Below are positions 4,705 through 14,407 of a stretch of 16,323 nt of DNA, piece by piece. The stretch's first letter is position 1, and every line of letters starts with the position of its first letter. Below the pieces are notes generated by a model, which saw nothing but the letters and a program-made list of their open reading frames with translations, ran no database searches and had not been told where the DNA came from. The translations under genes were made by a program, and so were the position numbers. This DNA comes from an uncultured Clostridium sp. (GTDB lineage Bacteria; Bacillota; Clostridia; Peptostreptococcales; Peptostreptococcaceae), in assembly GCA_900550335.1 (NCBI GenBank), contig URRU01000020.1, forward strand, positions 1-16,323, read 5' to 3'.

Positions 4705-4917
4705 AATAACTACCCTCTCCCTAAAAAAAATTCTATTAATATAAGTTTATAACTTTTTCGTAAATAAGTAAATTACAAGAAAAAATATAAGATAATTTAT
4801 TTGTGAAACTCAAAAAAATGACTAATCACTTTCAGAACTTATAGATATTTCCTACTCTCATTATACAATTTGATTGGACAAGAGAATTAACAATAAACAT
4901 AGATAAAAAATGAGAAT

Positions 4918-4997
4918 AAAAAAATAACTATAACTCGTTGACTATCTGCAAGCGTAGGCTACGCCGTAGCTGAAGCCAGGAAACGAGTATAGTTATT
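4918..4997 (-). terminator. Terminator with an oversized structured loop, behind the TPR gene
   Basis: Reading the minus strand, AATAACTATACTCGTT (4997-4982) pairs with AACGAGTTATAGTTATT (4939-4923) with one bulged base, and a run of seven T follows (4924-4918). The loop is the 42-nt core of element A rather than the usual 3-8 nt. The mirror strand also ends in T-runs, so it could act in both directions. Confidence 0.65.
4941..4980. other. Conserved core of element A
   Basis: ACTATCTGCA (4941-4950) and GAAGCCAGG (4972-4980) match the two flanks of the core behind mutS2 (ACAATCTACA and GAAGCCTGG) at all but one position in each flank. Between them lie two overlapping, mutually exclusive hairpins: GCGTAGGCTACGC (4952-4964) and GCTACGCCGTAGC (4958-4970). 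The flanks are not complementary to each other, so within the long stem they would form a conserved internal loop. I do not recognise the motif. Confidence 0.6.
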
Positions 4998-5015
4998 TTT
5001 TATTCTCACTATTTT

Positions 5016-6161
5016 TTATCTATATTTATTTAATTCTCTTAAACAAGCATTTGTAACCTCATCCATTGGATCAAGTTCATAAGCTCTTTCTATGTAATAA
5101 GCTGCATCGTCCATATTTCCATTGTTGAAATATGCCATACCTAAGTTACATAATATCTCAGGATCTTCTTTTCTAAGTTTAGCAGCCTTTTCAAAGTACT
5201 CTATAGCTCCTTCAAGGTTGTATTTCTGAGCTTCTAAAAGTCCCATTTCAACAAGAGTATCAACCTGAGTTGGTCTTAATACTAGTATTTTTTCAAAGTA
5301 TTTCTGAGCATTTTCAATATCAGCCATACCTTTATATCCTAGTGCTATCATGAATAATAAATTCCACCAATCTGGGAACTCATCTTCTAATGGAAGAAGT
5401 TTTTCTAATCCTTCTTCACATTTTCCTGAAAGAACTAAAGTGTATCCTTCTTCATACTGAACTTTGTAGTCCATCTTACCTAAGTTATCCTGAATTTCAG
5501 CTACTATATCGTCATCTAATTCTAATTTTAAAGCTTCTTCCCAAGTTAATTTAGATTTTATATACTGGTCCTGATTATAGTAGTGGTATCCTAACTGATA
5601 ATAAGCTAGACCAAAGTTTGGATCTATATTTATTACTCTTTCTAATTTATCAAGTGCATCAAGTAAAAAGTCATTTACTGCTTTTGCATCTTCATCTTTT
5701 TTGTACTGTTCTGCTATCTGCTGACAGATTATAGCATAATGATATAGCCCATTTACATCTTCTGGGTATTTATTTACTAGTGATTTCATGTATATTAATG
5801 AATCAGTGTACTCACCTATTTCAAAGTATTTATTAGACATATATCCCATATATGCTTTTAAATCTAAGTCTAATCCTTTAGCAAGTGCTTCTATAAATTT
5901 ATCATATTCTTCATTGTATTTGAATGTAGAATCTATACCCATTATATAAATCATCGCATCTGCTATAGACATAGAGTTTAAACTTTCCTGTGCAGTTTTA
6001 TCCTTTATCCCTTTAACAAGAACCTCATTTTTTATTGGAACATCAAGTCCTTCTGCAGGAATATCGTATCCTTTTATTTTGAAATCCCCGTCTGCTTTAA
6101 GAGTTATAAAAGCAAGCTCATCTGTTTTTTTAAGAAGGTATTTTTCTATTTTATATTTCAT
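5016..6161 (-). CDS. Tetratricopeptide repeat protein
   Basis: 381-residue cytosolic protein made mostly of TPR helices, which usually serve protein-protein binding. Clear repeat units include FGLAYYQLGYHYYNQDQYIK (about residue 184), WWNLLFMIALGYKGMADIE followed by AQKYFEKILVLRP, VDTLVEMGLLEAQKYNLEG followed by AIEYFEKAAKLR, and PEILCNLGMAYFNNGNMDD near the C-terminus. The first roughly 80 residues are non-repeat and have a mixed alpha/beta look. There is no signal peptide or membrane helix. ATG 6161 follows GGAAAGGTGA. It starts 35 nt after the stop of the B12-binding radical SAM gene and is almost certainly in its operon; a role as its partner is inference from position. Its last seven codons are part of a long palindrome with the downstream flank. 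Confidence 0.9.
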   Translation of the reverse strand: MKYKIEKYLLKKTDELAFITLKADGDFKIKGYDIPAEGLDVPIKNEVLVKGIKDKTAQESLNSMSIADAMIYIMGIDSTFKYNEEYDKFIEALAKGLDLDLKAYMGYMSNKYFEIGEYTDSLIYMKSLVNKYPEDVNGLYHYAIICQQIAEQYKKDEDAKAVNDFLLDALDKLERVINIDPNFGLAYYQLGYHYYNQDQYIKSKLTWEEALKLELDDDIVAEIQDNLGKMDYKVQYEEGYTLVLSGKCEEGLEKLLPLEDEFPDWWNLLFMIALGYKGMADIENAQKYFEKILVLRPTQVDTLVEMGLLEAQKYNLEGAIEYFEKAAKLRKEDPEILCNLGMAYFNNGNMDDAAYYIERAYELDPMDEVTNACLRELNKYR

Positions 6162-6196
6162 ATTTATTCACCTTTCCTTTTTATTTGTATATTCAA

Positions 6197-7951
6197 CTAA
6201 ATTTCCACTCTATACGATAGAGATTTTTCAAATATCTTTGAAATATCATAATCGAACATCACTATATTGTCAATCTTTTCAGGATTTATCATAATATTTT
6301 CCTTTAATGCCTCTACATCGTATCTAAATGGCTCAAATTGAACATATTTTATTATCATTTTTGCTGGTGTATCGAAGTGTTTTGGAATATACTTCTTAAC
6401 ATTTTCGTCATCCTGAAGGAATACATGGCATCTATTTTTAAAGTCCTCAGGATAATTTCTAACAAAGAAATCTGGCACATTGCTAGTTTTTCCAAGAGAT
6501 ACATAATCGTATTTTAAAATATCTCTAAATAATTCTATATCTTCTCCTATTTTTTCTTCATAGAAGTCTAATAAAATTTTATAGTTCTGATTTTTTCCCT
6601 GTCCAGCATCAAAATATCCATTTGAGTCATGATACTCGGCAAATTCTTCATAGAATTTAAATGGAGACTCTCTGTAATATCTCTTTACAATAAATTCCAT
6701 AGACATTCTAAAGTTTCCTGAGTTGTAGTATCTTTCAACCATCTCCTCAATATCTTTTAATTTTAATATTTCTCCATAAGAAATATATTTATTAGATAAA
6801 ACCTCGTAAGGTGGATATGATTTATACTCAAACCCATGCATATCAGCCATTTTTCTTATTCCTGTTCCCTTAATCATCTTTAAGAATCCTAGCTGTAGCT
6901 GCTCTATTCCTAAGTTATATACATCGTTAAATGATTTCTCAAACCCTTTATAGCCTTCATAAGGTAATCCTGCTATTAAATCTAAGTGCTGATGTATATT
7001 TTTATAAGATTCTATCTGTTTTACAACTTTAGATAATTTTACAAAATCGTCTTTTCTTCCACATGCCTCAAGTACATTTGGGTCTGTAGACTGAACACCT
7101 ATTTCAAATTGGAATAAACCTGGCTTACAGTCTTTTAAGAATTCCAACATCTCATCGTCAATTAAATGAGCAGTTACCTCAAAATGATATGTCGTAAATC
7201 CATTATCATTTGCCATAAGGAATTTCATTATATCCATAGCTGTTTTTTTCTTAGCATTAAATGTTCTATCTATAAACTTTATCTGTGCAACTCTAGCATC
7301 TATAAGATTTTTTAAATCTTTTTTAACTCTATCTAAACTAAAGTATCTAAGACCTTTAATTGCTGATGATAGGCAGTACTGACAGTTAAATGGACATCCT
7401 CTTGAAGATTCATAGTAAACTATTCTATTTTCGTATTCTTTAGGATCCATGTTATCGTATGGACTAGGTATTAAGTCTAAGTCCTGTAGATAAGGTCTTT
7501 CTTCATTCACTACAACTTTTTCTCCATCTCTCCAAACAAGACCTTTTATATCAGCTGCATTCATCTTCTCATTTAACATAAGACAAACATCTCTAAATGT
7601 AACTTCACCTTCTCCATAAAGGATATAATCTATAAAGTTATGCTCTTTCATTAAGTTTTCGCTATCGTAACTAACTTCTGGTCCACCTAGTCCTATTATA
7701 AGATTAGGCATAACCTTTTTTAAGTTCTCACAAAGGCTCATTATATCTACAACATTCCAGATATACACTGAGAAGAACACAGCATCGTATCCGCCTTTGT
7801 ATATATCTTTTAAAATATAATCAGCTTGGTTATTTATCGTATACTCTCTTATTTCTGTTTCTTGCACATCTTTTGCAAATTCTTTTAAATATCTTATCGC
7901 TAAATTTGTGTGTATAAATTTAGAGTTAAGGGTTGTAAGCAATATCTTCAA
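6197..7951 (-). CDS. B12-binding-domain radical SAM protein (DUF4080 type)
   Basis: 584-residue enzyme of unknown substrate. The N-terminal ~130 residues look like a cobalamin-binding Rossmann domain (MKILLTTLNSKFIHTNLAIRYL, later IGLGGPEVS), but no DxHxxG cobalt-ligand motif is visible, as is usual for this subgroup. The radical SAM core follows with the [4Fe-4S] motif CPFNCQYC, cysteines at about 186, 190 and 193. The FEIGVQSTDPNVL and LDLIAGLPYEGY stretches are typical of this core. The C-terminal third (about 370-584) matches the DUF4080 extension. Start: TTG 7951, six nt after GGAGGG; an earlier TTG at 7966 overlaps that ribosome binding site. The TPR gene follows in the same operon. Two copies of a 16-bp direct repeat lie in the promoter region. 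Substrate and need for B12 cannot be told from sequence. Confidence 0.9.
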   Translation of the reverse strand: MKILLTTLNSKFIHTNLAIRYLKEFAKDVQETEIREYTINNQADYILKDIYKGGYDAVFFSVYIWNVVDIMSLCENLKKVMPNLIIGLGGPEVSYDSENLMKEHNFIDYILYGEGEVTFRDVCLMLNEKMNAADIKGLVWRDGEKVVVNEERPYLQDLDLIPSPYDNMDPKEYENRIVYYESSRGCPFNCQYCLSSAIKGLRYFSLDRVKKDLKNLIDARVAQIKFIDRTFNAKKKTAMDIMKFLMANDNGFTTYHFEVTAHLIDDEMLEFLKDCKPGLFQFEIGVQSTDPNVLEACGRKDDFVKLSKVVKQIESYKNIHQHLDLIAGLPYEGYKGFEKSFNDVYNLGIEQLQLGFLKMIKGTGIRKMADMHGFEYKSYPPYEVLSNKYISYGEILKLKDIEEMVERYYNSGNFRMSMEFIVKRYYRESPFKFYEEFAEYHDSNGYFDAGQGKNQNYKILLDFYEEKIGEDIELFRDILKYDYVSLGKTSNVPDFFVRNYPEDFKNRCHVFLQDDENVKKYIPKHFDTPAKMIIKYVQFEPFRYDVEALKENIMINPEKIDNIVMFDYDISKIFEKSLSYRVEI

Positions 7952-7988
7952 AAAATCACCCTCCAAAAATTATTTTTTATTTTATTTG

Positions 7989-8035
7989 TGCAATATTCTT
8001 ATCTAATTTACTTTAATACTGCAATATTCTCATCT
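7989..8035 (-). promoter_or_regulatory. Tandem 16-bp direct repeat, candidate operator
   Basis: On the minus strand AGATGAGAATATTGCA (8035-8020) and AGATAAGAATATTGCA (8004-7989) differ at one base and start 31 bp apart, close to three DNA turns. They lie between the divergent radical SAM gene (start 7951) and the 67-residue gene (start 8124), so a protein bound here could control either. The repeat is not one I recognise. Confidence 0.5.
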
Positions 8036-8088
8036 TTCCTTGTATTTTACGCTTTATTTTATTATTATAATAATTGTAGGTAATATAT

Positions 8089-8094
8089 TATAAT
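8089..8094 (+). promoter_or_regulatory. Possible -10 box of the 67-residue gene
   Basis: A perfect TATAAT lies 30 nt upstream of ATG 8124. No good -35 hexamer is present at 16-18 nt; TTGTAG at 8074 is too close. The assignment rests on the -10 alone. Confidence 0.35.
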
Positions 8095-8123
8095 CGTCTA
8101 TTTTGACAGAAAGGATAGCTAAC

Positions 8124-8327
8124 ATGGAAAAGTTTGAAAAAGTTTCACTTAATGATTTATCTGTTCAAGACCTTCTTCTAATAATAAAAGCACTTGAATA
8201 CACTCACGAAAATACTAAACTAAATGTATTCGGCGACCTTAGAAATAATCTTGTAAAAGAACTTTGTTTCCTTACTGAAACAACTGAGTCTGAATTTCTT
8301 TCTTATATAGAATCTTTATCAGAGTAA
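8124..8327 (+). CDS. Small acidic hypothetical protein, 67 residues
   Basis: I do not recognise this protein. It is short, acidic and predicted mostly helical (VSLNDLSVQDLLLIIKALEYTHENTK, then LRNNLVKELCFLTETTESEF), with no membrane helix, signal or metal-binding cysteine pattern. ATG 8124 is chosen over TTG 8103 because AAAGGATAG sits just upstream and the earlier codon leaves no ribosome binding site. It is the only plus-strand gene between two minus-strand genes: divergent from the radical SAM gene and tail-to-tail with the 308-residue gene, the stops being about 6 nt apart. Its standard start, ribosome site and leader with TATAAT support a real gene. Confidence 0.7.
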   Translation: MEKFEKVSLNDLSVQDLLLIIKALEYTHENTKLNVFGDLRNNLVKELCFLTETTESEFLSYIESLSE

Positions 8328-8333
8328 CTTTTA

Positions 8334-9260
8334 TTATGATTTTTTTAAAAATCTAAAGCAGTACTCTCCTGATTTAGATACTACATTTATTTTTAATAAA
8401 TTTCCATTTATACTTTTTGATTTTACTGTAAGTTTGTTTAATATAGGGTCTTGAATTGAATCGCCCTCATTTAACGCAATAATCTCTAGAGGATTTGCCT
8501 TCGCATTATACTCTTTTTTATTAATTTTATACTTTTTAAGTTTTACAGTATAATCTGCCATGGAATTTACAAAGTCTATATTCTCTATTTCCGTTGAAGC
8601 ACTTTGACCTAATAGTGAGAATAGGACTTTTTTTATTGAATTTATATCTGTACTTTCATCCCTATCCTCTACATATATATCAAAAATAGCATCCAATAAT
8701 CCAGAGCATATATCATCACTCGAATCTCTTTTTCCATCCTTGTACTCATCTATCATTTTTATAAGAGATATTCTATACATCTGGAACTTTACAACTTCCG
8801 ATTTTTCCATATATATATTTAGTGAAATTAATCTTTCTTTTATAGAATCCATTATCTCTTCATATTCAACAATTGGATTTTTTATTAAAAGGTGCACTAA
8901 TTCACTATAAATAAGTGCAGCTATTAAATATTCACTATATTTTTTATCAATCTTAAAATACATTACATATTTTTTTACAAGCTCAATAAGCTCTCTATCA
9001 CATTTTTCACCGTCATTATTTCCAAGTATGACTGGTAGAAAAATATTTAAAAGATTTTCTTTGTTGTACTCTGCTCCATAAAATTTATAATATCTAAGCT
9101 CATCCCTAAGTCTATTATTGTCTATATATAAATATCTTTGCTTAAAATCATCTATCAAACATTTTGTATTTACTATCATCAGCATTTTTATTATATCACT
9201 ATCTGTGTCAAACGCACTTATATACGCATTTTTGATAATATTATCAATTTGATTTTCCAT
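8334..9260 (-). CDS. Unrecognised 308-residue soluble protein
   Basis: No family recognised. The protein is soluble, rich in Ile, Lys, Asp and Tyr, and helical over most of its length (about 1-240). The last 60 residues look strand-rich (LTVKSKSINGNLLKINVVSKSGEYCFRFLKK), suggesting a small beta domain. No signal peptide, membrane helix or catalytic motif is evident. ATG 9260 follows AGAGGTGAAATT, a strong ribosome site. It starts only 23 nt after the argS terminator hairpin, with no room for a separate promoter beyond it, so it is either read through from argS or transcribed from a promoter inside the argS tail. Four of its five glutamine codons are CAA, against mainly CAG in the neighbours, which fits low expression or a different origin. 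Convergent with the 67-residue gene. Confidence 0.8.
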   Translation of the reverse strand: MENQIDNIIKNAYISAFDTDSDIIKMLMIVNTKCLIDDFKQRYLYIDNNRLRDELRYYKFYGAEYNKENLLNIFLPVILGNNDGEKCDRELIELVKKYVMYFKIDKKYSEYLIAALIYSELVHLLIKNPIVEYEEIMDSIKERLISLNIYMEKSEVVKFQMYRISLIKMIDEYKDGKRDSSDDICSGLLDAIFDIYVEDRDESTDINSIKKVLFSLLGQSASTEIENIDFVNSMADYTVKLKKYKINKKEYNAKANPLEIIALNEGDSIQDPILNKLTVKSKSINGNLLKINVVSKSGEYCFRFLKKS

Positions 9261-9275
9261 AATTTCACCTCTAAT

Positions 9276-9307
9276 TTAAAAAAAGAGGCTTATAAAAATA
9301 AACCTCT
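9276..9307 (-). terminator. Rho-independent terminator of argS
   Basis: Minus strand: AGAGGTTTAT, loop TTTT, ATAAGCCTCT (one G-T pair) and then a run of seven T. The hairpin is 33-56 nt past the argS stop and runs almost to the ribosome site of the next gene. Confidence 0.88.
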
Positions 9308-9339
9308 CTCTTTACTCTAAACTACTTTAAATCTAAAAA

Positions 9340-11037
9340 CTACATTTTGTGTGGTGCATGCATTCCTAATAATGCAAGACCATTTTCTATTGACTGTCTT
9401 GTAGCTTCAACAAGAGCAAGTCTTGCTTTTCTTAATTCTGCATCGTCTACAAGTATTGGGTTGTCATGATAGAATTTGTTGAATGCCTGAGCAAGATCCA
9501 GTACAAATCTTGTTACTATATGAGGCTCATTTTTCTTCATTGATGCAAGTATGCATTTGTTGAATGATTCTATAACTTTTAGAACTTCTGAACTTCCTTC
9601 ATCTGAAAGTAAGCTGTAATCTATATCAGAAGTAACTTCTTCACCAGCTTTTCTTAATACTGCACAACATCTAGCATGAGTGTACTGAACATAAGGTCCA
9701 GTTTCTCCATCAAAGCTAAGTGTTTTATCCCAAGAGAATGTATAGTCTTTTATTCTACTATTTGATAATTCCTGGAATACAACAGCTCCTACACCTACCT
9801 GTTTAGCTATTTCATCAACATTTTCAGCGTTAGGATTTTTAGTAAGTATTATATCTTTAGTTTTTTCTATTGCCTGTTTTAAAACATCTTCAAGGAATAC
9901 TACTCTACCTTTTCTAGTAGACATTGTTCCACTTTCAAGAGCAACCATACCAAATGGAACGTGAACAAGGTCTTTAGACCATTCGTATCCCATAAGTTCT
10001 AATACTTTGAATAACTGCTGGAAGTGAAGTGCCTGCTGAGAACCAACTACATATAAACATTTGTCGAAATCATAAGTTTCTTTTCTGTATATAGCAGCTG
10101 CTAAGTCTCTTGTCATATATAATGTTGAACCGTCTTTTTTAGTTATAAGAGCTGGAGTTAAATTATATGCATCAAGATTTACTATATTTGTTCCTTCAGA
10201 TTCTTCTAGTAATCCTTTTTCTTTTATTAAATCTATTACTCTATCCATTTTATCTGAATAGAAACTTTCTCCTGCGTATGAATCGAATTCTATGTCTAAA
10301 AGATCATAAACTCTTGAGAATTCTTTTAAACTTTCATCTCTGAACCACTGCCATAAAGCTTTAGCTTCTTCATCACCGTTTTCAAGTTTTGTAAACCATG
10401 CTCTAGCTTCATCTTCCATTTCTGGATGTACTTCGGCTTCATCATGGAATCTTACGTATAATTTTAATAATTCTGGTATTGGGTTGCTTTCTACTGTTTC
10501 TTTATCTCCCCATAATTTGAATGCTACTATTAATTTACCAAACTGTGTTCCGTAGTCTCCAAGGTGGTTTATTCTAACCATATTGTATCCCTGAGAATTG
10601 TATATTTTGTATAGTGCATTACCTATAACAGTAGTTCTTATATGCCCTATATGGAATGGTTTTGCTATATTAGGAGAAGAGAAGTCAACTACAACCGTTT
10701 TTCCTTTTCCTAATTCACTTTTACCGTAGTTTTCTTTTTCAGTAAGAACTTTATTTATAACTGTTTCAGCTAATTTTGATTTATCAACGAAGAAGTTTAC
10801 ATATCCTCCTAGCTGAACAACTTTTGATATAGCTCCTTTTGGTTCTATTTTACCAGCTATATCTTCTGCTATCATATTTGGAGCTTTTCTAAATATTTTA
10901 GCTAATTTAAAGCAAGGGAACGCATAATCTCCCATTTCTTTATTAGGTGGTATTTCTATAAAGCTCTGTATTTCTTCTAAAGTAAGGTCTTCTATCTGTT
11001 CTTTTAGAGCAGAAGCGACTTCAAATTTAAAATCCAT
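9340..11037 (-). CDS. argS: Arginyl-tRNA synthetase
   Basis: Charges tRNA-Arg with arginine in the cytoplasm; class I synthetase, 565 residues, the normal size. An N-terminal tRNA-recognition domain covers about residues 1-85 (with GDYAFPCFKLAK). The active site has the HIGH signature in NIAKPFHIGHIR (H129-H132), then INHLGDYGTQFGKL. The KMSKS position is replaced by MSTRKG (372-377), as usual in this enzyme. The C-terminal ~120 residues are the all-helical anticodon-binding DALR domain. ATG 11037 follows GAGGAGGAAGAA at close spacing. A candidate promoter lies about 110 nt upstream, within the gap after the DUF523 gene; I see no T-box leader there. A strong terminator follows. Nearly all glutamines are CAG, consistent with high expression. 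Confidence 0.97.
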   Translation of the reverse strand: MDFKFEVASALKEQIEDLTLEEIQSFIEIPPNKEMGDYAFPCFKLAKIFRKAPNMIAEDIAGKIEPKGAISKVVQLGGYVNFFVDKSKLAETVINKVLTEKENYGKSELGKGKTVVVDFSSPNIAKPFHIGHIRTTVIGNALYKIYNSQGYNMVRINHLGDYGTQFGKLIVAFKLWGDKETVESNPIPELLKLYVRFHDEAEVHPEMEDEARAWFTKLENGDEEAKALWQWFRDESLKEFSRVYDLLDIEFDSYAGESFYSDKMDRVIDLIKEKGLLEESEGTNIVNLDAYNLTPALITKKDGSTLYMTRDLAAAIYRKETYDFDKCLYVVGSQQALHFQQLFKVLELMGYEWSKDLVHVPFGMVALESGTMSTRKGRVVFLEDVLKQAIEKTKDIILTKNPNAENVDEIAKQVGVGAVVFQELSNSRIKDYTFSWDKTLSFDGETGPYVQYTHARCCAVLRKAGEEVTSDIDYSLLSDEGSSEVLKVIESFNKCILASMKKNEPHIVTRFVLDLAQAFNKFYHDNPILVDDAELRKARLALVEATRQSIENGLALLGMHAPHKM

Positions 11038-11144
11038 TATTTCTTCCTCCTCAAATATTTTCTTTATATATTATTAATTTTCTTTATATTTTTCCGTACA
11101 AAAATCATAATTTCCCGATTTTACATACTTACACTTATCTCTCT

Positions 11145-11173
11145 ATGTTAAAACAATTTCAACTATTTTTCAA
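11145..11173 (-). promoter_or_regulatory. Candidate argS promoter
   Basis: Minus strand TTGAAA (11173-11168), 17-nt spacer, TAACAT (11150-11145; four of six consensus bases). It lies in the 181-nt gap between the DUF523 stop and argS, which otherwise holds no hairpin or gene. Confidence 0.4.
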
Positions 11174-11218
11174 GGTGTTTAGAAAATTTAATCATTCATT
11201 TTTTCTTTTTCTATTTAT

Positions 11219-11674
11219 TTACTTTTGAGCTTCTAAGTCCTTCTCACTAATCGCTTTTATTCCGTTCATTTCAAATAGAGCTGCAGTTACTCCTTTTCCT
11301 TCTTTTTTTATTCCTTTAAATTCTCCATTGTGTATTTTATTAACACCACAAGAAGGACTTCCCTCCTTCAATATCGCCAACTCTACATCGTATTTTTTTG
11401 CCTCTTCTAAGCTAACCTCTGCACCCTTCATATACTCTTTTGTAACATTTACTCCTACTCTAGATATAACCTTACAATTTCCATCTATTACATCTTTTCC
11501 TTCTCCACCTATTATCTCTGCAGGCTCTCTCGGAGTAGAAAGACCTCCTGTACACTCTGGGCAAATAGTTATGTATTCCTTTCCCTCTAAATAACTTAAA
11601 ACAGCCTCATTTCTATTATTTCCACCACTGTACTTACAATTTTCTCCAACTAAACAAGCTGATACAACTATCAT
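11219..11674 (-). CDS. DUF523 family protein
   Basis: 151-residue stand-alone DUF523 protein; function not established. It carries the family's cysteine-bearing motifs in order: VSACLVGENCKYSGGNN at the N-terminus, CPECTGGLSTPREPAEI near residue 38-54, and LKEGSPSCG near 100-110. The conserved cysteines suggest metal or Fe-S binding, but this is inference. In some relatives this domain is fused to a DUF1722 domain; here it stands alone, as is common in Clostridia. ATG 11674 follows GGAGGATGTTTT. A reasonable promoter lies at 11731-11760, downstream of the mutS2 terminator, so it seems to be an independent unit. Confidence 0.92.
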   Translation of the reverse strand: MIVVSACLVGENCKYSGGNNRNEAVLSYLEGKEYITICPECTGGLSTPREPAEIIGGEGKDVIDGNCKVISRVGVNVTKEYMKGAEVSLEEAKKYDVELAILKEGSPSCGVNKIHNGEFKGIKKEGKGVTAALFEMNGIKAISEKDLEAQK

Positions 11675-11730
11675 AAAACATCCTCCAAATCTATATTAAG
11701 CTTAATAAAAAATATCTTTCTCATATACTA

Positions 11731-11760
11731 ATTATACCTTTATATGCACGCCCTTGTCCT
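11731..11760 (-). promoter_or_regulatory. Candidate promoter of the DUF523 gene
   Basis: Minus strand AGGACA (11760-11755), 18-nt spacer and perfect TATAAT (11736-11731), about 57 nt upstream of the start codon. The -35 matches consensus at four of six bases. The rest of 11761-11865 is AT-rich with no further feature seen. Confidence 0.5.
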
Positions 11761-11892
11761 AAAATATTTTCCTAACAAACCCTTTTAAAAGTAAACTTTA
11801 TTAATAAATATTCTCTTTATTTAATCATTAAAAGCTATTTCATATAGTTATAAGGTACAATTTAATAACATTAAAATAATTTTATTATATAG

Positions 11893-12009
11893 AAAAAAGG
11901 TGATGTTCAATCAAACAGCAACAATCTACAGACGATTTTTACATTATCCTCGAACAACGTTCGAGATATAGAAAATCGTCGAAGCCTGGCGCGTTTGATG
12001 AACCTCACC
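11893..12009 (-). terminator. Terminator with an oversized structured loop, behind mutS2
   Basis: Minus strand GGTGAGGTTCATCAAAC (12009-11993) pairs with GTTTGATTGAACATCACC (11916-11899), followed by six T (11898-11893). The loop is a 76-nt structured core instead of a few bases. Position just after the mutS2 stop and the T-run support a terminator role. Confidence 0.7.
11921..11989. other. Conserved core of element B
   Basis: ACAATCTACA (11921-11930) and GAAGCCTGG (11981-11989) flank an inner stem GACGATTTT / AAAATCGTC (11931-11939 with 11972-11980). That stem carries a further perfect 7-bp hairpin CTCGAAC-aac-GTTCGAG (11949-11965). The flanks match those of the core behind the TPR gene at 9 of 10 and 8 of 9 positions, whereas the inner hairpins are unrelated in sequence. 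Conserved unpaired flanks with a variable stem are typical of structured RNA motifs; family not recognised. Confidence 0.6.
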
Positions 12010-12025
12010 TTTTTCTTTAAATATA

Positions 12026-14407
12026 TTATTTTAATGTTACGATTGTGACACCTACACCACCTTCACCGTATCCACCTTGTCTTTTTTTCTTAACATGCTT
12101 ATTCTTTTTAAGAACATCCTGAAGTCCTGTCTTTAGTACCCCTGTACCAACACCATGTATTACTGTTACCTGCTCTAAACCTGCAACTGTAGCATCATCA
12201 AGATATTTTTCAAGTTCAAGAGTTGCTTCTTCAAGATTCATTCCTCTTAAATCTACCTCTCCTTTAACTCTTCCTGATTTTGCTTTTATTACATTTCTAG
12301 TTTTCTTAGTAACTGTAGTGTGTTGCTGATTCTTAATTTTCTGAAGCGACTTATATGGAAGTGTCATTTTCATTATACCAATTTGGACAACTGCCTCTTT
12401 CTTTTTATCATCTGCTGAAACAACTGTACCCTCCTGGTTAAGTGTTATTACTCTTACATCTTCCCCAGCCTTTAAATTTTTAATTTCTTTTGATGCTACT
12501 TTTGGAACTATCATACTCTTAACAGTAGGCTGTAAACTTCCCATTGAATCCGTCAATTCTTTTCTAAGCTGTTCAATCTGTCTACTCTTTTCTTTTGAAG
12601 CTCTTTCCTGTTCTAATTCTTTAAGACGTTTTATTATTTCATCTACTTCTTCTTTTGCCTGTCTTGTTATAGAGAATGCTTCACTTCTAGCTTTTTCTAT
12701 CATCTTTTCTCTCTGATTAGTTAATTTTTCTAGCTTTTCAGCTTCTGCATCTCTTATCATCTGTATTTCAGTTTTTAATTTTTCAGCTTCTGCCCTATCT
12801 TCTTCTGCCTTTATTCTATTCTTTTCAACATTCTGAAGAAGGTCTTCAAGCTCTATATTTTCTGTATTTATAAATTCTTTTGCTCTATCTATTATATAAT
12901 CTCTAAGCCCTAGCTTTCTTGATATTTCAAATGCATTTGATTTTCCAGGTACTCCTATAAGAAGCTTGTATGTTGGGCTAAGTGTCTCTACATCAAACTC
13001 AACAGCAGCATTTTCAACACCTTTTTTAGTAAGTGCATAGTTTTTAAGTTCACTGTAGTGAGTTGTAGCTATGCATTTTGCTCCAGCCATTTTAACATCT
13101 TCAAGTATTGCAATAGCTAGTGCTGCACCTTCTACTGGATCTGTTCCTGCTCCAAGTTCGTCAAATATAACTAGCGAATCTTCTGTAACCTTATCTAATA
13201 TAGATACTATTCTAGTCATATGAGACGAGAATGTAGATAAACTCTGTTCTATACTCTGTTCATCACCTATATCTGCAAATATATTGTCATATACACACAT
13301 ACTACTTCCAAAGTCTGCTGGTATATGTAGACCACTCTGTGTCATAAGTGCAAATAGACCGACAGTTTTAATAGTTACTGTCTTACCACCTGTATTTGGC
13401 CCTGTTATAACTAATGTATGGAATTCATCGCCTAAATATATTGTATTTGCTACAACTTTTTTAGGATCTAATAGCGGATGACGTCCATTTTTTATTACAA
13501 AGTTTTTATCTTTATTTAGCTTAGGGTCTATACCTTTCATCTCAAGAGATAATTTTCCTTTTGCAAATATAAAGTCTATTTTTTCTAATATCTCCTGGTT
13601 TGAGATTATTTCTCTAGCTATTTCTCCTATCATTTTTGATAACTCAGCTAAAATTCTCTCTATTTCTTCTTGTTCATCTAACTTTAATTTTCTAAGTTCA
13701 TTATTCATTTCAACTATACTCATAGGTTCTATAAATAATGTGGCTCCTGAAGAAGATTGGTCATGTACTATACCAGATACAACAGATCTATACTCTGCCT
13801 TTACTGGTACAACAAATCTATCCCCTCTCATAGAAATAATACTGTCTTGTAAATACTTCTGATATGTAGCTGAAGATATTATTGAATTTAATTTAGATCT
13901 TATAGACTGATTTTTTTGAACGATTTTTCTTCTTATGTCTCTTAGTGTAGATGATGCACTGTCTGCTATTTCTAATTCACTTATTATAGCATTGTATACC
14001 GCATCTTCTATTTCTCTATGTATGTAGAGAGATGTAGCTAAAGACTGGATTATTGGGTAGTTGAAATCCTCTTCTTCTCCATCTCCAGATAAACTATTCG
14101 CAATTACTCTGGCCGCTCTTAAAGTATCTGCAACCATAAGTAAACTTCCTGGATCAAGAGATGCTCCTATCTCTGCTCTCTTTACCTTATCTAAAACATC
14201 ATGTATTCCTCCAAGACTTACATGCCCTCTCTTGATTAAAATAGATTGAGCTTCTGTAGTTTCCTGTAATCTATACTTTACTTCTTCAAAATCAGAACTT
14301 GGTTCTAACTTTTCAATCTTATTAAGTCCTAAAGAAGATGATGCTTTGGTTTTTAAAATATCTATTATCTTATCAAACTCAAGAACTTTGAATGACTTAT
14401 TATCCAT
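12026..14407 (-). CDS. mutS2: MutS2 family ATPase/endonuclease (RqcU-type)
   Basis: 793-residue MutS2. It lacks the mismatch-recognition domain of MutS; family members act on recombination intermediates or, in Bacillus, on collided ribosomes. Domains in order: helical clamp/core (about 1-300); ABC-type ATPase with Walker A GPNTGGKT (336-343), Walker B LVIFDE (412-417) and a THYSELK stretch after it; a long charged coiled coil (about 515-640, rich in Glu/Lys/Arg); a small beta domain; and a C-terminal Smr nuclease domain from about 718 with VDLRGMNLEEA and HGVGTG (751-756), ending GGYGEGGVGVTIVTLK. ATG 14407 follows AAGAGGGGATAGT; an earlier TTG at 14425 overlaps that site. It is divergent from pepD. 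Its final codons are mirrored in the palindrome downstream. Confidence 0.96.
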   Translation of the reverse strand: MDNKSFKVLEFDKIIDILKTKASSSLGLNKIEKLEPSSDFEEVKYRLQETTEAQSILIKRGHVSLGGIHDVLDKVKRAEIGASLDPGSLLMVADTLRAARVIANSLSGDGEEEDFNYPIIQSLATSLYIHREIEDAVYNAIISELEIADSASSTLRDIRRKIVQKNQSIRSKLNSIISSATYQKYLQDSIISMRGDRFVVPVKAEYRSVVSGIVHDQSSSGATLFIEPMSIVEMNNELRKLKLDEQEEIERILAELSKMIGEIAREIISNQEILEKIDFIFAKGKLSLEMKGIDPKLNKDKNFVIKNGRHPLLDPKKVVANTIYLGDEFHTLVITGPNTGGKTVTIKTVGLFALMTQSGLHIPADFGSSMCVYDNIFADIGDEQSIEQSLSTFSSHMTRIVSILDKVTEDSLVIFDELGAGTDPVEGAALAIAILEDVKMAGAKCIATTHYSELKNYALTKKGVENAAVEFDVETLSPTYKLLIGVPGKSNAFEISRKLGLRDYIIDRAKEFINTENIELEDLLQNVEKNRIKAEEDRAEAEKLKTEIQMIRDAEAEKLEKLTNQREKMIEKARSEAFSITRQAKEEVDEIIKRLKELEQERASKEKSRQIEQLRKELTDSMGSLQPTVKSMIVPKVASKEIKNLKAGEDVRVITLNQEGTVVSADDKKKEAVVQIGIMKMTLPYKSLQKIKNQQHTTVTKKTRNVIKAKSGRVKGEVDLRGMNLEEATLELEKYLDDATVAGLEQVTVIHGVGTGVLKTGLQDVLKKNKHVKKKRQGGYGEGGVGVTIVTLK

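What the first reader, a model, noticed from the sequence alone, without database searches (positions are those of the whole stretch)
4941..11989. Same conserved core motif in the loops of two terminator palindromes 7 kb apart
Behind the TPR gene (4941-4980) and behind mutS2 (11921-11989) the sequence reads ACWATCTRCA, a hairpin, then GAAGCCWGG. The flanks are nearly identical, while the hairpins between them are unrelated in sequence and length (about 21 and 50 nt). The outer stems that close the core are also unrelated. Both cores have the same orientation relative to the upstream gene (CCWGGCTTC first in the transcript). Conserved unpaired flanks inside variable stems is the signature of a structured RNA or a nucleoprotein recognition site rather than of a plain terminator. 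It resembles none of the small ribozymes, riboswitches or REP elements I can recall in detail. Possibilities: a protein- or small-molecule-binding RNA in 3' ends, a self-cleaving or processing motif defining mRNA 3' ends, or the ends of a very small palindromic mobile element.
Basis: partly seen in the sequence, partly recalled or inferred. Interest (0 to 1): 0.8.

Follow-up and report, generated by a model that had tools for sequence, protein, structure and literature searches.

The report
Palindromic repeats that mirror gene ends
The two matching motifs belong to a family of about 100 hairpin-forming DNA repeats, found so far in one bacterial lineage, that sit behind genes and often carry a backwards copy of the end of the gene in front of them; how they spread and make that copy is not yet proven.

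Summary
Both sites share the core CCWGGCTTC-[variable hairpin]-TGYAGATWGT (gene strand). No Rfam family reaches threshold. The window is Peptacetobacter-like. An unnamed relative, G034, 91% identical over 10 kb and occupied at both sites, holds 98 model hits; of 393 genomes of the order one other has a hit, a decayed copy. This is a dispersed, lineage-specific repeat.

93 of 101 copies lie behind a same-strand gene, none between divergent genes. In 94 of 101 the core sits in an imperfect palindrome (arms 24-214 nt). The downstream arm is an inverted copy of the 3' UTR and, in part of the copies, of the last codons: arm length tracks the stop codon (Spearman 0.76, n=72), and 17 of 88 gene ends match their own element's far arm best (about 1 expected).

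Best reading: a mobile palindromic element of REP/ERIC/MITE kind at gene ends, serving as or lying behind terminators, its far arm made by fold-back DNA copying. A 3'-UTR RNA role is not excluded. The enzyme is unknown; a terminator-targeting IS91-family transposon is only a lead.

The parts
4972..4980 (-). site 1, 5' half of core, CCTGGCTTC
   Evidence: model R1 hit 4985-4934, E 7e-9
4951..4971 (-). site 1, variable inner hairpin (21 nt); the orthologous site in G034 has an unrelated 46-nt hairpin here
4941..4950 (-). site 1, 3' half of core, TGCAGATAGT
4981..5040 (-). site 1, upstream (5') arm: TPR 3' UTR plus about 25 nt of TPR coding sequence (stop codon at 5016-5018)
4880..4940 (-). site 1, downstream (3') arm: inverted, imperfect copy of the upstream arm; carries the T7 tract of a terminator
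11981..11989 (-). site 2, 5' half of core, CCAGGCTTC
   Evidence: model R1 hit 11994-11914, E 5e-18 (this copy was in the model's alignment)
11931..11980 (-). site 2, variable inner hairpin (50 nt)
11921..11930 (-). site 2, 3' half of core, TGTAGATTGT
11990..12039 (-). site 2, upstream (5') arm: mutS2 3' UTR plus the last 14 nt of mutS2 (stop codon at 12026-12028)
11866..11920 (-). site 2, downstream (3') arm: inverted copy of the upstream arm, with a T6 tract

Best explanation
The two sites are members of a lineage-specific, high-copy family of non-coding palindromic DNA elements (about 100 copies in a close relative), comparable in kind to REP, ERIC or MITE repeats. Shown by the sequence: a conserved mismatched core around a variable hairpin, set in a long imperfect palindrome; placement behind stop codons in the sense of the gene; in many copies a terminator-like T tract behind the hairpin or a terminator-like hairpin before it; and a downstream arm that is an inverted copy of the gene's 3' UTR and, in part of the copies, of its last codons. 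Inferred: the core is the recognition hairpin for whatever moves the element, and the element goes in at gene ends near terminators. Also inferred: the far arm is made, and later kept complementary, by DNA fold-back synthesis, either snap-back extension of a hairpin end along the target strand or replication template switching. This rewrites one arm from the other and can run into the gene's last codons. For the host the element most likely serves as, or stands in for, the gene's terminator, which would explain why site 2 is as conserved as coding sequence.
For: Family and lineage restriction: 98 model hits in G034, 1 in G001, 0 in G002 (at most 150 candidates scored per genome); a scan of 393 genomes of the order found hits in G034 and G001 only (stricter filters, 12 candidates scored per genome). 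In the sister locus L001 the conserved blocks around the two sites lie 62 and 82 bp apart, against 328 and 352 bp in the window, with no element; of five G034 gaps with elements compared with G001, four are shorter there and one is alike in length, none with an element by eye. Position: 48 copies in tandem and 45 in convergent context behind a same-strand gene, 8 in the opposite sense, 0 of 101 between divergent genes, where 60 of 331 gaps over 150 bp in the same stretches are divergent. Arms: 96 of 101 copies score above the best of 20 shuffles, 94 of them in register with the core. Host-specific copy: own downstream flank ranks first for 17 of 88 gene ends and in the top 5% for 27; controls 2 of 88 (direct orientation) and 1 of 86 (deeper coding sequence). 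Arm length tracks the stop codon: Spearman 0.76, n=72 with distance under 200 nt; 0.55 for all 77; median overrun 15 nt; spread 10.5 nt against 32 in permutations, lowest 18 of 20,000. DNA-level copying: in 15 subfamily-A copies, 50 two-sided pairing-preserving changes (29 transversions) against 25 two-sided non-pairing ones, single-sided G.U 31 against A.C 35. Template switching is described as a way to make and repair hairpins (PMC8794818, abstract and passages). Host use: a T5+ run follows 28 of 103 hairpins within 6-26 nt. Site 2 divergence from G034 is 4-7% in core and arms, 6.5% in mutS2 coding sequence, 18% in the rest of the gap.
Against: No clean recent insertion with a perfect inverted copy was seen: arm identity including gaps is 65-88%, median 79%. 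Near-identical copies (910917, 1430244, 1457098) share arms that are already imperfect, so for that subfamily the arms travel with the element, and 65 of 101 upstream arms resemble another copy's. Only 27 of 88 gene-end copies are individually convincing and the median rank, 37, is close to the 43.5 expected by chance. Over all 77 copies the linear correlation of arm length and stop distance is weak (Pearson 0.16, p 0.15), because five copies lie more than 200 nt from the stop. No target-site duplication was defined. The inner stem favours G.T over A.C (33 to 8, copies not independent), the core keeps an almost fixed G.U pair (89 of 92) and the outer parts of the arms have more G.U than A.C (77 to 32), all of which suit RNA. 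The quasi-regular one-base insertions in the downstream arm (mode 9-11 nt) are not explained by simple copying. The enzyme is unidentified: no match to reverse transcriptase (PF00078) or Y1 transposase (PF01797) in G034, and the IS91-family transposon there lacks the core.
Confidence: 0.6

Rival explanations
1. A structured 3'-UTR RNA: the transcript folds into the long hairpin, the core binds a protein or RNA, and the hairpin ends, protects or processes the mRNA. Selection on RNA pairing keeps the arms complementary up to the stop codon, where ribosomes prevent pairing.
For: Fixed orientation behind genes (93 of 101), covariation of core and inner stem, an almost fixed G.U pair in the core, G.T over A.C in the inner stem (33 to 8) and in the outer arms (77 to 32), the arm boundary at the stop codon, and coding-like conservation at site 2.
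Against: Subfamily arms show no G.U preference among single-sided changes (31 to 35; 8 to 7), and near the core A.C exceeds G.U (34 to 16); 43 of 103 copies have a terminator-like hairpin in the 230 nt upstream of the core, 37 within 120 nt, so the core may often not be transcribed; hits in only two of 393 genomes of the order; no Rfam relative.
Confidence: 0.25
2. A non-autonomous passenger of an HUH (Y2, IS91-family) transposase: single-stranded hairpins are inserted at terminators by the transposase of the IS91-like transposon of G034, and an unjoined hairpin end is extended along the target strand.
For: G034 has 14 near-identical IS91-family copies, G001 and G002 none. All 14 of 14 insertions lie directly behind an intrinsic-terminator stem against 38 of 400 random intergenic points, and many elements also lie in or behind terminators. 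The transposon's 3' end carries a stem (CTGTCACA...TGTGGCAG, then T6) of the kind seen in element arms.
Against: The element core is absent from the transposon; by position only 2 of its 14 copies end next to an element (12 and 31 nt before the model start by the aligned end), and a third has an element about 200 nt beyond its other side; the presence-absence match rests on three genomes; it is unknown whether the window's species has the transposon.
Confidence: 0.15
3. Ordinary intrinsic terminators that resemble each other by chance or because of a shared composition.
For: Both window hairpins end in T6-T7 and each half-motif is common when one mismatch is allowed.
Against: 98 hits in one genome to a model built from 22 copies, with E-values down to 8.5e-23 (the 22 match by construction); covariation; long arms, some reaching into coding sequence.
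Confidence: 0.01

Closest known systems
REP / BIME / REPIN sequences (mobilised by RAYT, a Y1 transposase)
   Same: High-copy intergenic palindromes, absent between divergent genes, frequent behind genes, often in facing inverted pairs; may end or stabilise transcripts (properties of REP recalled).
   Different: No Y1 transposase match in G034; much longer, with host-mirroring arms; the conserved part is an internal mismatched core; REP arms do not copy the neighbouring gene (recalled).
ERIC / IRU and other palindromic MITEs
   Same: Imperfect palindromes of 100 nt or more with a conserved centre, in intergenic regions near stop codons (recalled).
   Different: ERIC has conserved arms and is known from enterobacteria (recalled); here arms and inner hairpin vary and mirror the local gene end.
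Template-switch hairpins (Monttinen and Loytynoja 2022, PMC8794818; abstract and passages read)
   Same: Inverted copies and two-sided compensatory changes made by DNA replication switching templates.
   Different: The passages I saw treat microRNA and rRNA gene stems, not a dispersed family with a conserved core.
Integron attC sites
   Same: Structure conserved, sequence variable, extra bases on one strand, placed at gene ends in fixed orientation (recalled).
   Different: Copies are spread over the chromosome, not in a cassette array; conserved part inside rather than at the base of the hairpin; no integron integrase was sought.
Stem-loop repeat families of bacterial genomes (PMC2267715; abstract read)
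   Same: Catalogue of 92 repeated stem-loop families found in a set of 40 genomes, two thirds intergenic and with a common predicted fold.
   Different: I did not compare its families with this one; host-copied arms are not mentioned in the abstract.

Membership tests
Rfam RNA families | covariance-model match at the curated threshold | tested here: not met
   0 matches in the window and in three G034 stretches; permissive hits far below threshold, best MIR8562 with 26.7 bits against 211 needed
REP/RAYT | Y1 transposase (PF01797) in the same genome | tested here: not met
   0 in G034; present (with stops inside) in G001 and G002, which have 1 and 0 element hits
REP/RAYT | dispersed intergenic palindromes, not between divergent genes, with inverted pairs | tested here: met
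   0 of 101 divergent; 14 facing pairs with starts 206-513 nt apart and one at 851
REP/RAYT | conserved 5' GTAG-type tetranucleotide at the hairpin foot | not tested
   motif recalled; no formal test made
MITE of a DDE transposon | terminal inverted repeats and target-site duplication | tested here: inconclusive
   subfamily A shows repeated TATAAATTTACTA-like ends on inspection; no duplication defined
Intrinsic terminator | hairpin followed directly by a T tract | tested here: inconclusive
   met at both window sites and in 28 of 103 copies in all (T5+ within 6-26 nt of the model end); not in the others
IS91-family derivative | ends shared with the transposon | tested here: not met
   neither core half occurs in the 1715-bp transposon; only a terminator-type stem is alike
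Structured 3'-UTR RNA | transcribed, function depends on RNA fold | not testable with these tools
   no expression data; sequence evidence mixed
Template-switch hairpin | two-sided compensatory changes without single-sided G.U intermediates | tested here: inconclusive
   subfamily arms: 50 against 25 two-sided changes, G.U 31 and A.C 35; inner stem G.T 33 and A.C 8
Integron attC | R'/R'' core sites, cassette array and IntI | not tested
   not searched for; copies lie dispersed along the chromosome

The most novel reading that the evidence does not exclude
A new class of mobile DNA hairpin that goes into the 3' end of genes as single-stranded DNA and, while its own end is folded back, is extended along the target strand. 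Every insertion thus writes an inverted copy of the host gene's 3' UTR and last codons into its far arm, turning the gene end into one long, personalised hairpin whose outer limit is set by the stop codon.
Probability: 0.25. Interest if true: 0.85.

Novelty: new variant of a known kind. Interest (0 to 1): 0.64.

Why it matters
If right, this is a repeat family in which many copies carry a reverse copy of their own host gene's end. That is a natural record of fold-back DNA synthesis at tens of sites in one genome, and a system in which the origin of long hairpins (for example small-RNA precursors) can be studied site by site. It also links gene ends, terminators and mobile elements: the stop codon appears to set the edge of the copied stretch. 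And a sizeable number of gene 3' ends in this lineage would depend on a recently spread repeat.

Tried and rejected
Rejected: plain terminators (copies, covariation); any Rfam family at threshold; reverse-transcriptase or Y1-driven spread by a gene now in G034. No trace of spread by phages or plasmids in what was searched (two viral contigs pattern scans with 0 stretches; one element against phages and plasmids, no match). Considered and left open: IS91-family mobilisation, integron-like recombination.

Led nowhere or was mended: 11 pattern matches in nine other family genomes look like chance. Of these 11 loci, 9 scored below their shuffled maximum and 2 above it but out of register with the core; in the same run 2 of 19 G034 loci also fell below (L024, L029), though both pass the finer test. 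The first inner-stem count was partly out of register and was replaced; in turn skipped 12 of 92 rows. Alignment A2 had wrong coordinates for one row and was not used. The spacing test used simulated arms in which fewer insertions were recovered than in the real ones, so its excess (44 against 18.5, s.d. 4.3, 60 simulations, 52 non-redundant copies) is somewhat inflated. For arm statistics I kept 81 of 101 copies (score more than 6 above the shuffled maximum, upstream arm starting within 25 nt of the core; one of the 81, 1145194, has its downstream arm 172 nt away), and for the stop-codon test 77 (more than 4 above, same-strand upstream ORF), of which 72 within 200 nt. The dropped copies include 5 whose arms did not beat shuffles. 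Three of the 101 copies are weak model hits outside the 98. ORFs were called by a simple rule (90 aa or more, longest first), so some of the 8 opposite-sense cases may be missed small genes.
Full report
WHAT WAS CHECKED. The finding names two motifs 7 kb apart. Both are present exactly as described, on the - strand, behind the TPR gene (stop codon 5016-5018) and mutS2 (stop codon 12026-12028). Each region folds far better than shuffled sequence (z -4.7 and -6.9). Rfam has no match at gathering thresholds; permissive searches return a few long-hairpin and other models far below threshold.

WHERE THE WINDOW COMES FROM. No whole genome is held for the window. A protein of the window finds Peptacetobacter sp. 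(90% amino-acid identity) and Peptacetobacter hominis (76%) as nearest named relatives. It may be P. hiranonis or a close neighbour; that name is my guess, the handle bears none.

COPIES ELSEWHERE. The gapped pattern occurs 32 times in G034 and 11 times in nine of the other 70 family genomes, against 4 matches of the reversed control in 71. The 11 others lack core-anchored arms above shuffles. A covariance model from 22 copies, window site 1 not among them, gives 98 hits in G034, 1 in G001 and 0 in G002 (at most 150 candidates scored per genome), and finds site 1 at E 7e-9. In 393 genomes of the order only G034 and G001 have a hit at 1e-5 (stricter filters, 12 candidates scored per genome). 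The single G001 copy is decayed and lies behind what reads like gpsA (name recalled from the sequence), as does an intact G034 copy. No copy was found in viral contigs by two patterns, nor in phage or plasmid records by one element. In the sister locus L001 the conserved blocks around the two window sites lie 62 and 82 bp apart, against 328 and 352 bp in the window, and no element is seen between them. So the family spread in one lineage, and both window sites were most likely filled before the window's organism and G034 parted.

ANATOMY. The core is a mismatched helix: three outer pairs, a two-by-two mismatch, C-G, A-U or U-A, G.U, a G-A mismatch, C-G, U-A, a C-G pair in 67 of 92 copies, then an inner stem that varies but stays paired. 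In 92 aligned copies 94% of pair cells are standard; 13 of 14 pairs change on both sides and 201 cells carry such a change, against 64.6 in shuffles, none of 500 reaching it (the alignment was fitted to this structure). Inner hairpins fall into subfamilies. At the TPR site the inner hairpin and nearby arms differ between window and G034, in both arms together, while site 2 is conserved. Around the core lie long arms. In 96 of 101 copies the fold-back score exceeds the best of 20 shuffles, 94 of them in register; upstream arms of those 94 are 24-214 nt, median about 72, with identity including gaps of 65-88%, median 79%. Arms are shared within some subfamilies: 65 of 101 upstream arms match another copy above the 95% level of a shuffled control, part of this probably through a common terminator-type stem (14 of 28 terminators in element arms against 23 of 145 at gene ends without element). 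The other 36 have no recognisable relative by that test.

POSITION. Of 101 copies, 48 lie between two same-strand genes in the sense of the upstream gene, 45 between convergent genes, 8 in the opposite sense and none between divergent genes; 60 of 331 gaps over 150 bp in the same stretches are divergent. Fourteen facing pairs of elements have starts 206-513 nt apart, and a fifteenth lies 851 nt apart. By strand composition the replication terminus is near 1.1 Mb, and 92 of 101 copies lie between 0.23 and 1.53 Mb.

THE COPIED GENE END. Many arms do not stop at the stop codon. In 57 of 77 copies the fold-back arm enters the coding sequence by 6 nt or more. Arm length follows the distance from core to stop codon (Spearman 0.76 for the 72 copies under 200 nt; 0.55 for all 77, where the linear correlation is weak, Pearson 0.16), and for the 72 the overrun into the gene has a median of 15 nt with half of the values between 7 and 31. 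With distances permuted, the median absolute spread rises from 10.5 to 32 nt, lowest of 20,000 permutations 18. Tested one by one, the last 40 coding bases match the inverted downstream flank of their own element best in 17 of 88 cases (about 1 expected), and 27 are in the top 5%; the median rank, 37, is only a little better than the 43.5 expected. The same test in direct orientation gives 2 of 88 first ranks, and for coding sequence further in 1 of 86. The two window sites rank second, each behind its own G034 orthologue. Many individual overruns are short and prove nothing alone; the case rests on the set and on about 27 clear copies.

COPYING, AND AT WHICH LEVEL. In 15 copies of subfamily A, 50 pair cells changed on both sides and still pair (29 by transversion), 25 changed on both sides and do not; single-sided changes are G.U 31, A.C 35 and other 91. 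In 9 copies of subfamily II the numbers are 10, 5, 8, 7 and 26. No preference for G.U is what copying of DNA predicts. The inner stem leans the other way (G.T 33, A.C 8) and the core has a nearly fixed G.U (89 of 92). By distance from the core the arms are mixed (G.U against A.C 16 to 34 near, 42 to 52 middle, 77 to 32 far), and related copies were not separated there. I therefore rate DNA-level copying as likely but not settled. Replication template switching is a described way to make and mend such stems (PMC8794818, abstract and passages read).

A REGULARITY LEFT UNEXPLAINED. One-base insertions are nearly three times as common in the downstream arm as in the upstream one (318 against 114), and their spacing peaks near 9-11 nt, about one helical turn (44 observed against 18.5 +/- 4.3 simulated in 52 non-redundant copies, somewhat inflated as told above). 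Avoidance of long perfect stems, by a hairpin nuclease or RNase III, is one possible reason; not tested.

USE TO THE HOST. Twenty-eight of 103 copies (both window sites included) have a T5+ run 6-26 nt behind the model end, as a terminator would; 43 have a terminator-like hairpin in the 230 nt upstream of the core, 37 of them within 120 nt; 7 have both. At site 2 core and arms differ from G034 by 4-7%, like the coding sequence (6.5%), while the rest of the gap differs by 18%, which suggests selection for function there. Site 1 was rebuilt, so this rests on one site.

WHO MOVES IT. No reverse transcriptase or Y1 transposase match was found in G034. G034 has 14 nearly identical copies of an IS91-family transposon (Y2_Tnp and Zn_Tnp_IS91 domains), without a match in G001 and G002; every copy sits directly behind an intrinsic-terminator stem (14 of 14 against 38 of 400 random intergenic points). 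Its preference for gene ends parallels that of the elements, but it lacks the core and ends next to an element in only 2 of 14 cases. It is a lead, not a finding.

LITERATURE. Searches, of which I saw the listings, show no paper that by title or abstract start describes such elements; one search failed and was not repeated. PMC2267715 (abstract only) shows that repeated stem-loop families are a known kind. Properties of REP, ERIC and attC are recalled.

VERDICT. The kind (mobile palindromic repeat) is known; the mirrored gene end is, as far as I could see, a new variant. The mechanism is inferred.

Noticed in passing
L174-L187 (G034: 574304, 812559, 921296, 950354, 1080990, 1122192, 1163297, 1245045, 1473166, 1522892, 1569427, 1595272, 1809824, 1844832): An IS91-family (Y2) transposon in 14 near-identical copies, all inserted directly behind the stem of an intrinsic terminator; its own 3' end is a terminator-like stem with a T6 tract. 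The one paper search on this returned nothing.
   Followed up: partly
G034 0.23-1.53 Mb (L078-L117): 92 of 101 elements lie in the half of the chromosome around the terminus, which strand composition puts near 1.1 Mb.
   Followed up: partly
G034, arms of 81 copies: One-base insertions in the downstream arm recur about every 9-11 nt; no explanation.
   Followed up: partly
G034 551060 and 1018562: By inspection, next to these elements lie upstream-arm pieces of another subfamily without its core; at 551060 the piece ends inside the core sequence. They look like deletion or recombination products between facing elements.
   Followed up: no
G034 1457098: By inspection, an element appears fused to a truncated HTH-type regulator gene, as if a deletion had joined gene and arm.
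   Followed up: no
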